Source: Pyronema omphalodes (lineage: Eukaryota; Ascomycota; Pezizomycetes; Pezizales; Pyronemataceae). Taken from it: a DNA stretch of 64,000 nucleotides. The notes below the pieces were generated by a model that ran no database searches, was not told where the DNA came from, and was given only the letters and a program-made list of their open reading frames with translations. How positions within the stretch are numbered: the stretch's first letter is position 1; every line of letters begins with the position of its first letter. Position numbers and translations under genes: made by a program. This document shows positions 16,825 to 51,688 of the stretch, piece after piece. The stretch spans positions 62,001-126,000 of the forward strand of contig JAJJXM010000064.1 in assembly GCA_024516155.1 (NCBI GenBank). Reading direction: 5' to 3'.

Positions 16825-19800
16825 CTAAACCGGGGCTTCCGGTATGGAGGGCTCGCTCTCAGAAATAGCCCCGGCGCTAGTGAGTAGCTTTGCGATTGAA
16901 TCATGGCCTCTGTAGGATGCCCGGGACAACGCATTTCGGCCATAGCTGTTCTTCGAATTAATATCGATGCCATCCACCTGGAGTAACACCTTTACAACGG
17001 AGTCACGACCATTCTCGCATGCCCATGAAAGTGCGGTTTGCCCGTTATTATCCTTTGAATTGATATCGATGCCTTCTGCCTGCACGAGGATCTTCACAAC
17101 TGACTCGTGACCGTATAAAGATGCTAATGATAATGCGGTCATGCCGTTTTCGTCCTTCGAATTGATATCGATACCTTTTGTCTGCAGGAGGAATTTTACA
17201 ACTGACTCCTGGCAGTACTTGGATGCTGATGACAGTGCGGTCATGCCGTTTTCATCCTTCGAATTGATGCTGATACCTTCTGTCTCCAATAGCAGCTTTA
17301 CAACTGAATCATGACCTTTTCCAGCGGCCAATAACAGTGCGGTACGGTTGTAACAGTCTGTCGCATTTATATCGATACCATTCGCTTGTAAAAGTAGCTT
17401 TACGATTGAATCGTGACCTTTTTTGCATGCCCATGACAATGCGGTTCTGCCCTTGCCATCCTTGGAGTTGATGTCGACGCCTCGATTCAACAGAATACGC
17501 GCAATATTCTCCTGCCCGACACGGGACGCCTGTAGCAACATCGTACTGCTGCCCAATTTGGTATTAAAATCAAAGCTTTGAGGCAATACATTCAGGAGAT
17601 CGGTGAAGACGTTTTTTAACCCACAGCTAATGGCGAACTGTAAGCGAAGATGGATTTGCATTGTCGAAGTGTATTCATGTTCGGAACAAGTATTTCTTTT
17701 GGACGGTTCGTGAAAAGGATATAGAAATGTCGAGCGAAGGCCTGTAGAAATGCGTCGCAGATCTACTGTGTCTGGAAACAATGCACTGATGATATCGGAT
17801 GTGTGTGAAACGGCATGGGATAGGTGGTAACCGATGTTATTGGCAGCATAATCGAGAAGACAGAACCTCTTTCGGCGACGATCTTCGATATCCTTGGTCG
17901 CTTCCTGTGCCGTCGCATCTATTCCGTCTTCATCATCGTGGAAGAGCATGTACTGTGAGCAGGTGTAGGCTATCTCGCTATGCCCATCAGGGAATATTTT
18001 ACCCTCTTCGTACAGCGATGTCAAGTGATCGTGGAGAGACTTGTGTACGAGTCGGATGGTGGACGTCTCTGTATCTACAATAACCAGGCCGAGACACCAG
18101 TCTATCAATGATTTCTCAGAAGGAAAGTTGTCCCAGTCTAGTGTCTGGTCGTACTCTAGTGGCAGTTTTTCAGTTTGCATATCGCTTTGATCAATCGAAA
18201 CCGAAAGAGCATGGCGTAACTCCATGACGGTCAATGGGCGTTGCGCGAGAAATATCCACTTAAGAACCTCAAGCCCTTGATGGGATCTTTCGGATTTCTG
18301 GTTCCTGATTCTTTCGATTGTACTTTCAAAAGCCGTTTCTAGTTTGGTGGGCATGCTAAAGAGTGCTGTACGACGTTTGCTAATTGTTGCCTGGTCTAAT
18401 ACGGTTTGGATTTGGAGAACCGGCAGTAGGAACCTGCATTTATCTGATGTGTTAGTGGTCTTCTTTTACAGTAATAAATGATCCGTGACCAAAACTTTTG
18501 CTTGGGTTTATAAGGAGTTTCATCACTCACATTCCGTCGGAATTATCGACAATCCTATCCAAAATCTGGCGTCTAAGTTCATCAGTCATACAGTCGCCAT
18601 TGTCGTCCTTCTTGATTATGTAGGATATGTATTTCCTGATATCGTCTGACTGCGCTCTTAAACATAAGTACTCTACAGGGCCGAGCCTTGGATTGTATTT
18701 CATGATGTCTTTCAGGCCGATGTGCGGTCTTGCCGTGAAGAATATCCGTAGTGAGGTTTGGAGGCTATATTCGCTTGAGATTTTCTCCAGGGATTGCACT
18801 AACTGTATGCGGTGATGCACGTTGCATTCGTCCAGGGCATCAATACACACATAAAACTTTTGAATCTGCTTAACGGTTTCCATCAACAACCGACAGGCTT
18901 CCTGTAGATCGATATTTTTCTGTTCGTCGAGATGCTCTCTCAAGGTAGAGATGGTATCCGGTGGTAATAACCCCAACTTGTCGAGTCTTGCTATGACTTG
19001 CTTCAGAAGGACACCAACCATGTTCACCGGAGTTTGATCCTTTTGGTCTCGGTAATCGCAGTATAGGCAGACCACACACACGTTTTCTTCGGTGGAGAAC
19101 TTGAACTTTTTGTTGAGATGATCGAAAACAAGAGAACTGCATCATGCAATATCACATCAGCAAGTCACGACCTGCGTTGGTTCCAGGATTCACAACGTAC
19201 CAGATAACCGACTTTCCTGCACCTGGCATTCCATAGCACACTAGGACAGGATTGAAATCACCATCTGATGTCAATTTACCGTCCCTCCATTTCTCGAACT
19301 CCGGTTGCTGCAGAAACCAATCTCCAGTGCCTTCAATTCGCTTTTGCTGGATGTCGTGATGCCTTTTGAGGGGTTGTAACGATGACAGCCACGGCATAAT
19401 TTTCTGAATCTCATTATCTGCTGCCTGTTAGTCGGAAGCACATTCATTGCTTTCCATGGACCCACCTTGTAGTCTGTTGACTTCTCTCACGTTGAATTGA
19501 GCCAGCTCAGAAAGCAGAGTCTTGATGATCGGTATGTCAGCCATTCGCTGTTCCAAATCGGCAGGGATCGAGACTGAAAGGCTCTCCATGACAGCTGCGA
19601 GGTTCTCCATTTCTTGCGAATTTCCGTCGAGCAGCGACTGTACGTTTAAGAACTCTCCTGACATGAGCTCACTGGTACGCATCAGAAGTGTAATCTCAGA
19701 GCAACTCAAAAGTATATGAACATACTGATTCTTCATTGTCATCCAGAATTGAAAAATATTCGCAAGCCGCTGTAGTCCAACGACAGTCCCCTGTAGCTCA

Positions 19801-43300: not shown

Positions 43301-45727
43301 CCTTTCACGAAAGTTCGAGAAATGGATATTTATATCACGTTATATAAAATAATTACCTGGCTTGAAAGCCACACTCTTATCGCGAGCGCCAATCGATTTC
43401 CACGGAATTTTCTTTGTCATGAGGTAGGCATAATCGGAGTCTTAAGGCTCGAAATCATACGGGCTTTCCTGATATTCCCACGGCTGAATCGGATTCAAAG
43501 TGTGCATGACTTCGGGCAACGCGCAAATCACACAGTGATGAATGTCTCTGGGATATAGCGTTTAATTTCTTCGGTTGATACTTGCGCTTCAACACTAATA
43601 TTCGCCAGCATCGCGTATCCTGTGTATGAATCTCCCAATTGATCGACGTTTGACGCAAGATTTAAGCGCGCGCTGCCTACAACCAGTTTCTCCAGCCGAT
43701 CCGCGTAAGCTAAACGCTCTAGAAGGTACTACATCAGGGTTTACCAAGAAAAAACCCAGTCAGAAAGGCCCAGGATCCTCAACGCAACCGATTACCGCCG
43801 TTATCTTACCATGATGAATGTCAGATTTTCGTTTATATATTACAAAACTTATCGGAGCTTTGAAAGCATCGCACGTTTCTTGACCTTGTCGCCTGGATTA
43901 AAAACATCGTTTGCTGCCGTCTTGAGAGTAGTTTCTAACCGTTTTTCTGGTAATCATTGGACACTTTACACGATTGTTTTTCATGTGTTTAAACTCTCAT
44001 GGACGTTACGAGTACATTGAGTGGACCCTCCTCAATTTCCAGCACCCATTATCAGTTATATACACCCACTTAAAAACAGAACTATATTAAACTTTTCCGA
44101 TATCATACATCAGTTATATCTTAATTCGGCTCGAGCTCTATGCTTTTCGACTGAATGGTTTCATGACCATTTCCGCTGGGTGGTAGCAAGTGGCAACATT
44201 GTTTATCACTCGACGATTTGCATCGGGACTCCAGAATGCCACTTCCCCGTAACCCAATCAATTTGGCGCCTTTATTTTATGCTGGAAGAATAAAAAATGC
44301 ACAGAAGACGTTACAAGCCACATCTTGATGGGTGCATGAATTCCAAGACTTTTTCGTGGTTCCGGCTTTGTGTGCGGAAGGTTCCATCGAGCCACCGCTA
44401 AAGTGCATTACTTGAATGCATCACGGAGATATTCCGTACTTTGGAGGTGAACTAAAGTGCTGTTTTACATGCATCAGCCGCGTTTGAAGTTTCTGACCGT
44501 AGGATCAGTCGCGCCACTGGTACTCGGCATGGCCAACCTTGAAGTAAGCCACGAAGTGCTCGAAAAAAAACTGTGACATCAAGCCGCTAACCCTTCGAGT
44601 TGTACGAGTACAGAGGAATTAAACTCAGCTTATCTCTTGGAACATACGATATGTATGCTTTTATTCGATCAGCAATTGTACCACACGCCGCAATCCATGC
44701 TTGTATGCCGTAAGATCTCATCAATCATCCGAAATAAGCTCAACGCGCATCTCGGTTCTTATCAACCTTCTTCATCCTCGTATGTTCAAGCATGCTGCAT
44801 GACCCATGCCACCTGCCCGGTTCATTCTCCCGAAAATTTAGGTACAGCCGTTGCGGTTTACACCAAAAATAGGATTCGACTTTTTCACTTCACCAAAATA
44901 CATGCCGAAAACTCCTTGCATGCTCAAAGCCGAGTGATGACGTGAATTATCAAGTTCAGTGATAAAGGTTGGTTGAATCTTTCAATGATGAAATTCGTGT
45001 TACCCACAATGAGAAACGTCTCGTTGTCATATATTTTCCATTGCTGATGTTGCAATAACTTGAATATCCCTGCCACATCACATACACTGCATACATATTA
45101 GCAATCATGGAGCGGTCACTATGATCACTCGTCCTACGTTCCGAAGTTGCCTTCCTCGAGTATATAATCCGATTACTCATGTCCTTTTACCGGAAAGTAG
45201 ATCCTTCTTGAATGTTCAGCCCTAAACTGGGCCTTGACAGGGAATCTTGTCATGCCAAATTAGAATGATGAATAACCGCATGTAATTCGTCACTTATATT
45301 GCTCGCTTTCCTATTCGCTGGTTGATCTGGGATTACCTTTACCAGCCTCCTCCAAAGACCTGAATGAGGATTACTCTCATCTCCTAACACGTTACTGGAT
45401 GCCAAAAGAAGGCTACCGGAGTTCTACCTAGAATTGAACTCTAACGTTTGTTATTAAGAATACATTTTACGGGGAAGAACCAATGGAATGTTCATCTCGT
45501 CAAAATCCATCATAGTGATCATCTTAGATCCCACAATACTGACCACTAATTTACAACTTGAATAAGCACTAATCTTGTCCTCCGCATCGTGGTAACACGA
45601 ATATCAATTACGACTGAAAACATAGGCAATGCTTCAACCAAAGTCAGGCCACGCCTTGCGTTTTCATCCGGTTTCAAGACCGATCTTCCACAAAGTAGCT
45701 GCCTAGAAATGATACATCAAGTCTGCA
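40344..45727. other. long gene-poor region, right part
   Basis: About 5.4 kb without a supported gene. The longest frames (about 109 codons near 42.8 kb and 41.6 kb) show no motif, signal peptide or codon pattern that distinguishes them from chance. Base composition is ordinary and CpG is retained, so this is not an extreme AT-rich block. Confidence 0.5.
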
Positions 45728-49764: not shown

Positions 49765-51688
49765 ATGTTCTCACCACTTGAAACGAAAACCCTCTTCCGT
49801 TCCCTCACACCCCCCATCGCTATCCTCGAACTCACAAACGCTACCGGTATCATAACTGAAGCCCGCGCCTCCGCCGACCTCCTTTCTCTCCTTCAGGGCT
49901 CCGGTCGTACCACTGTCTACGAACTCTCCCAGCAGCTGTTTATCGATGCTCATACTATCGCGCGTTTACTACCAGCGGATGCGGCAAGGATTGGCAGTAG
50001 TACTGTACTCAGATATGGAGAGGTGGAGAGATTAAGGACGGTGATGAAGGAGGAGCTAGAGAAGGGTGTGGTGAGCACGACGGAGTTTGGAAGGAGGGAG
50101 GAGATTGATTTGGGTTTGATTAGGAGGGTGTTGCCAGAGGAGACAGGGTGGTTGGGGGATGTGAGTGTTTATAGTCTGGAGTTTTATGAGAAGGCAAAGA
50201 AGACTTTGGAGCAGCTACGAGAGAGGGATACCCCGATGAGCGGGGTGGAATTGGTTCCGCGAGCTACCATGGCTTTGGTGCGGAAGGCTGTGGGCGAATT
50301 AGTTAAGGAAGGAATAGTGAAGGGATTTTGGGAGGCTGAGAGGTGGATTCCGGAGGCATATGTAGATGGACTACAGAAGGCGGCGATAGAGGAGCTTAAG
50401 ACGGATGGTGTTGTGGGGATTGAGAAGGTTAAAGAGGCATACATCAAGGACCCTATGGCGTTTGTCAAGGAACATCTACCGGATGCACAGTTACTTGCGA
50501 CGAGCTTTGTTACTGCCGAGTTTTTGGAGAAATTGGAGAACGGGGTAGAGGAGCAGGTTAAGAAGGAGGGTTGGAGTTACGTGAAGGATTTGGAGCACCG
50601 GTTGACTCCAGAGGATGAGAAAGTGTTCAAAGCTCGGATCATTACAAAGCTAGAGGTATTCGAGAGCGCGGGGGTTGTTGTTTCAAAGGCAGCTTCGACG
50701 GCACTAGAGGAGAAGTGTAAAACCTTCTCCCAGCAGAAAGCAGATATGGCATGGAAGAGGCGAGCCAAGCAGCAGCCGGTTGATCCCCCGATAAAGAAGG
50801 CAGAGGTACGTGAGCTCCGAGCACAGATCTTCGTGATGTATGACGTGCTGACGAGTGATAGATTACGCAATTACTAGCTGCTGATTCAAAGCTGCCTGAG
50901 TCTGTGCTGACGCAACTTACCAATCGGTTACATTCTATTGCAACGAAGACGTTCAAGGATAGATATGAGCAGCTACGACAGGTTGTGCTTACCAATGCTA
51001 AAAAGGAGTTTACGGACAAGTTCTATGCTAGGTTCGCAGTTCACCTCAGAGCTTTAGCTTCGATTAAGGATATCACCCTCAGAGACAGGCTCGCTGGGGA
51101 TCTCCTACAGTGGGCAAAGACCACAGGAACTGCTGCCGTGGAGAAGCTTGATATGGTGTTGATGACCGAGGATTTGGAGGGGGACCACCAGCCATTGTAT
51201 GAGCTCCGACTTGTGCTCCAGACTACAGGACAAGGCCGGCCAGAGACCTGCCTAAGAGATGTTGAGAGCTCTCTGCAGGCTTTTATGCCACTCGATGATC
51301 TCACAAAATATAAAGAGATTATGATGAATGAGATTAACTTGTTGCTTCAGTCAACATCTGATTACTCCCTAGCTCTGTTATCAACGCTCTTGCTATTGCT
51401 AGCTACGAGGTCGGGTGGTGTATTGAAAGCTTCCGGGTATGATAGCTTGATTTACTCTGGTCATTTTCGACAGTTGCTAATAAATTTGATAGGAAATACG
51501 TGCCCAAGCTCTTCAAGGAAGTGCAGGGCGCGGGGCTGATATCCTCCGAGCAGCTTGTGCTTCTGACAAATGTGAAGAGTGCAGTGGCCAAGGGCATCAA
51601 GACAACTGATCAGGGTCAGTCTGACGTTTCTGCGGACGAGATGGCACAATTGAAGGCCATTGGAGCACAGGCATCCCCGAAACCTTGA
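49765..51688 (+). CDS. UFL1: UFL1-like UFM1-protein E3 ligase
   Basis: Three exons (49765-50805, 50862-51436, 51493-51688) with two 56-nt introns give 603 residues. Colinear resemblance to UFL1 runs along the protein. SGRTTVYELSQQLFIDAHTI corresponds to the second winged-helix region, YIKDPMAFVKEHLPDAQLL and VEEQVKKEGW to the central domain, and LALLSTLLLLLATRS with KYVPKLFKEVQ to the C-terminal helical domain. UFL1 is the scaffold E3 that, with DDRGK1 at the ER, transfers UFM1 from UFC1 to ribosomal protein uL24 (RPL26) and other targets. At 603 residues it is about 190 shorter than human UFL1; the basic, Lys-rich middle insert is missing and the first winged helix appears reduced. Exons join cleanly and no stop interrupts it, so it looks functional. 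None of UFM1, UBA5, UFC1 or DDRGK1 is in the window. Confidence 0.83.

What the first reader, a model, noticed from the sequence alone, without database searches (positions are those of the whole stretch)
49765..51688. UFL1 homologue in an ascomycete
UFMylation is absent from budding yeast and is widely considered lost in many fungi. Here a 603-residue protein aligns by eye with several UFL1 segments from the second winged helix to the C-terminus, but lacks the Lys-rich middle region. It has intact exons and sits among housekeeping genes. Either the lineage retains the pathway, or UFL1 has been kept for a UFM1-independent job.
Basis: partly seen in the sequence, partly recalled or inferred. 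Interest (0 to 1): 0.75.

Follow-up and report, generated by a model that had tools for sequence, protein, structure and literature searches.

The report
Stripped-down UFL1 in a cup fungus
A cup fungus carries a shortened, much-changed relative of UFL1, a protein that in animals helps tag ribosomes with the small modifier UFM1, although no UFM1 tag system could be found in its genome, which suggests the protein now does a tag-free job.

Summary
The gene is real: three exons (49765-51688, +), 603 aa, identical to a deposited Pyronema omphalodes protein (Pezizomycetes). It is a diverged UFL1 homologue. Pfam UFL1_C passes its cut-off (27.7 vs 24 bits), E3_UFM1_ligase falls just short (22.6 vs 23.2), and no other family is significant. 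Alignment to human UFL1 beats all 500 shuffles in both halves.

The pathway was not found: no UFM1, UFC1 or CDK5RAP3, and no UBA5 among 17 ThiF matches. RPL26 ends before the UFMylated lysines. DDRGK1 was not found, but the same tool also missed this UFL1 gene, so these absences are not proven.

The 'Lys-rich middle' it lacks is the PTC loop of human UFL1. Its N-terminus is too short for both the UFC1-binding helix and the DDRGK1-pairing half-domain. It is therefore unlikely to be a working UFM1 ligase; a UFM1-independent scaffold, perhaps on 60S subunits at the ER, fits best. UFL1 retention without UFM1 is already published (PMC10183829, passages); the stripped-down form is what is new here.

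The parts
49765..50805 (+). Exon 1 of the UFL1-like gene (residues 1-347)
   Evidence: Splice model; identical to the deposited protein; genome self-match
50862..51436 (+). Exon 2
   Evidence: Intron 50806-50861 GT..AG
51493..51688 (+). Exon 3 with stop codon TGA
   Evidence: Intron 51437-51492 GT..AG
49765..49851 (+). Short N-terminal segment (residues 1-29), which stands where human UFL1 has 56 residues (alpha1 helix, hinge and pWH half-domain)
   Evidence: Local alignment begins Pyronema 30 = human 57; which of the two elements was lost is not resolved
49903..50463 (+). Winged-helix region matched by E3_UFM1_ligase PF09743 (residues 47-233, profile 69-271 of 272)
   Evidence: 22.6 bits, cut-off 23.2
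50764..50802 (+). Residues about 334-346, the place where the 88-residue PTC loop of human UFL1 (388-476) is missing
   Evidence: no GG dipeptide in residues 331-510; loop limits from PMC10937380 (passage)
51345..51640 (+). UFL1_C domain PF25041 (residues 509-588), split by intron 2
   Evidence: 27.7 bits, cut-off 24

Best explanation
This is a diverged but maintained UFL1 homologue that no longer works as a UFM1 ligase. Shown: UFL1 homology; an intact gene; loss of the PTC loop; an N-terminus too short for both the E2-binding helix and the DDRGK1-pairing half-domain; no detectable UFM1, UFC1, UBA5 or CDK5RAP3; RPL26 without the acceptor lysines. Inferred: the remaining winged-helix array and C-terminal helical domain act as a scaffold. 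The most likely site is the free 60S subunit at the ER, where human UFL1's C-terminal domain covers the tRNA sites, either with a diverged DDRGK1 or with another partner. There it would block 40S or translocon rejoining by occupancy alone, without UFM1 transfer and without probing the peptidyl transferase centre.
For: The only significant or near-threshold Pfam matches are UFL1 models. Both halves align in order with human UFL1. A close relative of 370 aa, 87% identical over the aligned part, keeps the exon-1 frame open. UFM1, UFC1 and CDK5RAP3 gave no match. A ThiF search gave 17 matches that I read as UBA1, UBA2, UBA3, AOS1, ULA1, ATG7, UBA4 and a TCD-type E1 plus two unrelated dehydrogenase-like frames, but no UBA5 (Pfam run on 3 of them). 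RPL26 ends ...LERKGGKGKITE. Its exons of 36 and 47 matched positions were found, so short conserved exons are visible to this search. Published: UFL1 and DDRGK1 are frequently kept after loss of UFM1 and may have UFM1-independent functions (PMC10183829, passages); the UFL1 CTD covers the A, P and E sites and clashes with 40S, and the PTC loop is UFL1 388-476 (PMC10937380, passages).
Against: The genome search also missed this very gene with both UFL1 models, so a diverged DDRGK1, UFM1 or UFC1 could be missed too. Structure prediction failed (mean pLDDT 36.8 and 42.0), so the fold and any ribosome surface are untested. Only one relative was found, in searches that score a limited list of candidates, so selection and lineage depth are poorly known; that relative scores below cut-off for the UFL1 model (18.5 bits). 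Pieces of the middle and the N-terminus taken alone do not align significantly, and hhalign put the N-terminal half in another register. The 60S step is by analogy only. Loss of the PTC loop could equally mean that ribosome binding itself was lost.
Confidence: 0.55

Rival explanations
1. The whole UFMylation pathway is retained in Pyronema but has diverged beyond detection, and this protein is its ligase.
For: The search tool is blind to strongly diverged members. A C78 peptidase, the fold class of the UFM1 proteases, is present.
Against: UFM1 gave no candidate with either the model or the human sequence, and UFC1 none. No UBA5 was read among 17 ThiF matches. The RPL26 acceptor tail is missing. 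The N-terminus is too short for E2 recruitment plus DDRGK1 pairing. Fungal C78 enzymes are known as Mug105/ZUFSP-type ubiquitin proteases (recalled).
Confidence: 0.07
2. The gene is a relic on its way out: it is still open, but has no constrained function.
For: Strong divergence from human UFL1 (24% identity). No relative outside the near Pyronema type was found in 3 searches. Several functional elements are lost.
Against: Reading frame and splice sites are intact. The second sequence keeps the frame over the 347 codons of exon 1, at 87% identity over the aligned part. No DNA of the relative was available, so selection was not measured.
Confidence: 0.13
3. The protein is not a UFL1 homologue but another winged-helix or PCI-type protein.
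For: Pairwise identity to human UFL1 is only 24%. PF09743 is just below cut-off and PF23659 does not fire. No usable fold model.
Against: Among 24736 Pfam models only the two UFL1 models and a non-significant Vault match (E = 0.29) are listed at E up to 1. The C-terminal model passes its cut-off. The two significant alignments are in the same order as in human UFL1.
Confidence: 0.05
4. A UFL1 scaffold that recruits a different E2 or ubiquitin-like modifier.
For: By my reading the genome keeps the ubiquitin, SUMO, NEDD8, URM1 and ATG E1 enzymes. UFL1 itself belongs to a scaffold-type E3 (PMC10937380, passage).
Against: No RING, HECT or other E3 signature. The known E2-binding element is at best doubtful here. 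No direct evidence.
Confidence: 0.05

Closest known systems
UFL1 / E3 UFM1-protein ligase 1 (human, PDB 8ohd chain A)
   Same: Winged-helix region (human about 57-389) and C-terminal domain (human about 535-713 and the UFL1_C model) align in order.
   Different: 603 vs 794 aa; 27 residues fewer before the first aligned motif; PTC loop 388-476 absent; PF23659 model not detected; 24% identity.
UFL1-DDRGK1 pairs kept in eukaryotes without UFM1 (PMC10183829)
   Same: UFL1 present where UFM1, UFC1, UBA5 and C53 are not found.
   Different: DDRGK1 was not found here (inconclusive). Whether the published cases share the loss of the PTC loop and N-terminal element was not examined. The passages seen do not name this lineage; the paper's figures were not available.
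UREL complex UFL1-UFBP1-CDK5RAP3 on the 60S subunit (PMC10937380)
   Same: Retains the counterpart of the C-terminal domain that covers the tRNA sites in human UREL.
   Different: CDK5RAP3 and UFM1 not found; PTC loop gone; RPL26 lacks the acceptor tail.

Membership tests
UFL1 homologue (sequence family) | UFL1_C domain (PF25041) above curated cut-off | tested here: met
   27.7 bits, cut-off 24, E = 2.5e-6; also the Pfam domain precomputed for the deposited protein
UFL1 homologue (sequence family) | N-terminal E3_UFM1_ligase domain (PF09743) | tested here: inconclusive
   22.6 bits against 23.2, E = 9.8e-5, profile 69-271 of 272; relative P0003 18.5 bits; alignment z 7.4
UFL1 homologue (sequence family) | UFL1-like middle domain (PF23659; human 538-655) | tested here: inconclusive
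   Model does not fire on the window protein but does on human; the region lies in an alignment with z 5.5
UFL1 homologue (sequence family) | UFL1 fold | tested here: inconclusive
   AlphaFold2 models of pLDDT 36.8 and 42.0 are unusable; no fold search was run on them
Active UFM1 E3 ligase | Both the UFC1-binding helix alpha1 and the pWH half-domain that pairs with DDRGK1 | tested here: not met
   29 residues precede the anchor against 56 in human. Global scores of the two sequences: alpha1 z 1.44 and 1.99, pWH z -0.40 and 0.28: there is room for one at most
Active UFM1 E3 ligase | PTC loop (human 388-476, GGN apex) | tested here: not met
   About 42 residues against about 146 in the interval; no GG in residues 331-510. 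Whether the loop is required for ligase activity was not seen in the passages read
Active UFM1 E3 ligase | UFM1, UBA5 and UFC1 in the genome | tested here: inconclusive
   None found, but the same tool missed the diverged UFL1
Active UFM1 E3 ligase | DDRGK1 partner | tested here: inconclusive
   Model hit is the PCI end of proteasome RPN6; the two protein-query hits are a frame antisense to a syntaxin gene and a retrotransposon-like frame
Active UFM1 E3 ligase | CDK5RAP3/C53 subunit | tested here: inconclusive
   No match, same caveat
Active UFM1 E3 ligase | RPL26 C-terminal lysines (human K132, K134) | tested here: not met
   Pyronema RPL26 ends ...DREAILERKGGKGKITE-stop, before those positions; human sequence recalled, Lys134 named in PMC10937380
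Active UFM1 E3 ligase | UFM1 transfer activity | not testable with these tools
   Needs biochemistry

The most novel reading that the evidence does not exclude
In this cup-fungus lineage UFL1 has been reduced to a UFM1-free ribosome or ER factor that has shed the ribosome-probing PTC loop and one of the two N-terminal ligase elements. It would be a natural separation-of-function form showing what UFL1 does without UFM1, and a candidate for the alternative 60S-recycling route that fungi are thought to need.
Probability: 0.3. Interest if true: 0.7.

Novelty: new variant of a known kind. Interest (0 to 1): 0.45.

Why it matters
Two open questions meet here: what UFL1 does without UFM1 (raised in PMC10183829), and how fungi release 60S subunits from the ER without UFMylation (raised in PMC10937380). 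A cup fungus whose UFL1 has lost defined parts but is still an intact gene makes the first question testable by knock-out and pull-down. It also warns that a fungal UFL1 can diverge so far that a Pfam-based genome scan misses it.

Tried and rejected
Homologue searches: the full protein and two regions gave only the protein itself and one 370-aa relative. One search scored just the 7981 candidates sharing most words, so more distant relatives may exist unseen. No tree and no deep alignment could be made. AlphaFold2 on the two-sequence alignment and on residues 160-335 gave unusable models, and no fold search was run on them. PDB sequence searches with the protein gave nothing, and with the two-sequence profile one irrelevant chain at E = 2. 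A scan of bacterial and archaeal genomes for UFL1 relatives matched 167 stretches by pattern, but none encoded a relative.

By eye I first read the N-terminal 29 residues as the DDRGK1-pairing half-domain with the E2-binding helix lost. The scores did not support that: the helix fits slightly better (share of 2000 shuffles as good: 0.089 and 0.035 for alpha1, 0.672 and 0.371 for the half-domain), and the automatic alignment also places the segment there, though two prolines sit in it (one in P0003). I left the choice open. A first global alignment of residues 1-100 with human 1-130 was not significant and used a different register (z 1.0).

The DDRGK hits were rejected: the RPN6 PCI domain, a frame antisense to a syntaxin gene, and a frame that reads like a retrotransposon integrase (one search listed no frame because that one runs off the locus). 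A local scan of the window for DDRGK1 gave best scores of 42 and less, without a shuffle control. The C78 peptidase was not counted as a UFM1 protease.

Full report
Gene. The finding's coordinates hold. Exons 49765-50805, 50862-51436 and 51493-51688 joined at standard GT..AG borders give 603 residues and a stop at 51688. Within the ranges tried nine splice combinations stay open, but this one equals the deposited protein of Pyronema omphalodes, BZA77DRAFT_150088, letter for letter. The organism is a pezizomycete ascomycete. An in-frame stop lies upstream of the ATG with 20 codons between, and the relative P0003 starts at the same methionine; an upstream spliced exon is not excluded. Searching the genome (60.8 Mb, 232 contigs) with the protein gave three matches, all exons of this gene. 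Neighbouring frames are a HAD hydrolase upstream, an Arb2-domain protein downstream and, further off, a fungal transcription factor.

Identity. Pfam gives UFL1_C at residues 509-588 (27.7 bits, cut-off 24) and E3_UFM1_ligase at 47-233 (22.6 bits, cut-off 23.2). The only other line is a non-significant Vault match. The relative, which covers only exon 1, gives E3_UFM1_ligase at 18.5 bits, below cut-off, and a non-significant DUF5587 match. phmmer against the PDB gave nothing. BLASTP to human UFL1 gives two pieces in the same order at E 0.002 and 0.003 for that pair. Smith-Waterman over the whole protein aligns residues 30-357 with human 57-415, z 7.4, 0 of 500 shuffles as good; its last part, beyond about residue 333, is weak. 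The C-terminal half aligns 376-546 with human about 535-713, z 5.5, 0 of 500. Against this: pieces taken alone are not significant (residues 1-100, z 1.0; 240-480, z 0.5; 326-480, z 0.2; 335-400, z 1.8; 335-480, z 1.1). Human UFL1 has a further Pfam domain, PF23659, that does not fire here. I take homology to UFL1 as about 0.9 likely or better.

Register. hhalign of the two single sequences put residues 34-331 on human 122-389 (probability 46%, E 2.1e-4), which skips the first human winged helix, and its global mode gave nothing. The Pfam match (residue 47 at profile position 69, where human 7-284 spans positions 1-272) and Smith-Waterman agree on the register used here. If hhalign were right, still more of the N-terminus would be missing.

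What is missing. In the human protein, residues 388-476 form the PTC loop, which enters the peptidyl transferase centre with a GGN tip (PMC10937380, passages). In Pyronema about 42 residues stand where human has about 146 (between the two significant alignments), and residues 331-510 contain no GG. At the N-terminus 29 residues precede the first aligned motif (ITEARA / ITPAQI) against 56 in human. Human needs alpha1, which binds UFC1 (I8, F15 and Q19 tested by mutation in the paper), plus a half winged helix that pairs with DDRGK1. There is not room for both. Which one is left cannot be told: global scores of the 29 residues against shuffles are z 1.44 and 1.99 for alpha1 and -0.40 and 0.28 for the half-domain, for the two sequences.

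Pathway. All twelve genome searches went to the window's own genome. UFM1, UFC1 and CDK5RAP3 gave no match. DDRGK gave only a hit in proteasome RPN6, and the human DDRGK1 domain gave two weak hits: E 0.214, antisense to a syntaxin gene, and E 7.07, in a frame that reads like a retrotransposon integrase. ThiF gave 17 matches, 14 over the cut-off. Reading the translations they are UBA4, UBA2, UBA1 (two pieces, and a third below the cut-off), a TCD-type E1, UBA3 (two pieces), ATG7 (two copies of one locus), ULA1 with two partial copies, and AOS1 (two pieces); the two other sub-threshold matches look like an alcohol dehydrogenase and a GMC oxidoreductase. This is my reading; Pfam was run on 3 of the 17 and fits it (UBA2-type, ThiF, ATG7). 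None reads as UBA5. A C78 peptidase is present (140.4 bits; 141.6); its GFCGYRN motif looks Mug105/ZUFSP-like (recalled), so it is no evidence for UFM1. RPL26 was found in two exons and ends LERKGGKGKITE, short of the lysines that carry UFM1 in human.

Limits of these negatives. The same tool failed to find this very gene with PF09743 and PF25041. It sees short, conserved exons (RPL26, 36 matched positions, E 1.6e-13) but not strongly diverged ones. UFM1 is highly conserved where it exists (recalled), so its absence is fairly credible; absence of DDRGK1 is not established.

Interpretation. UREL lacks conserved catalytic features and works as a scaffold (PMC10937380, passage), so loss of ligase function would leave a protein that can still bind. 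[quoted passage not shown] PMC10937380 asks how fungi recycle 60S subunits without UFMylation. Pyronema fits this known pattern. The reduced form would bind by its winged helices and C-terminal domain only. The ribosome and ER step is an inference from the human structure and rests on nothing measured here.

Literature coverage. Seven searches listed no paper whose title or abstract start deals with UFL1 in Pezizomycetes or with UFL1 forms without the PTC loop. Several listings were capped (15 of 136, 8 of 284, 15 of 41,071, 10 of 12), only open-licence papers are held, and figures and supplements were not seen. The Pyronema confluens genome paper (PMC3778014, term search only) has no occurrence of UFM1, UFL1 or ubiquitin in its main text. 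A 2014 review (PMC4092871, abstract start in the listing) states that Ufm1 is absent from fungi.

Verdict. A true, diverged UFL1 homologue of a known kind of occurrence, in an unusually reduced form. Moderate interest.

Noticed in passing
L007 (G000:C78:18539-22357) and L008 (G000:C153:71960-75778): The ATG7 gene appears twice with the same frames and coordinates within the locus; C78 is a 25-kb contig, so it may be a duplicated or haplotype contig rather than a second gene.
   Followed up: partly
L012 (G000:C175:2123-5344), L013 (G000:C101:18381-21581), compared with L009 (G000:C90): Two partial copies resembling the first part of a ULA1/NAE1-like gene lie near the low ends of their contigs, possibly gene fragments.
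   Followed up: no
L021, G000:C168:258860-259591: A C78-family peptidase with a long, Arg/Ser-rich N-terminal part and no second Pfam domain, probably a Mug105/ZUFSP-type ubiquitin protease (recalled).
   Followed up: partly
window 16828-18465, minus strand (converted from reverse-complement position 45536): A 546-residue open frame with a stretch that reads like the region after a NACHT domain of fungal incompatibility-type proteins (my reading only).
   Followed up: no
human UFL1 residues 477-507 (comparison sequence): Pfam gives a sub-threshold match (23.6 bits, cut-off 27) to the mitochondrial ribosomal protein mL44 endonuclease-domain model just after the PTC loop.
   Followed up: no
L001 (G000:C79), RPN6 PCI region: The DDRGK profile gives a weak match to the PCI domain of RPN6 (18.7 bits, 17.9, cut-off 27.8), a reminder that winged-helix profiles cross-match.
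   Followed up: yes
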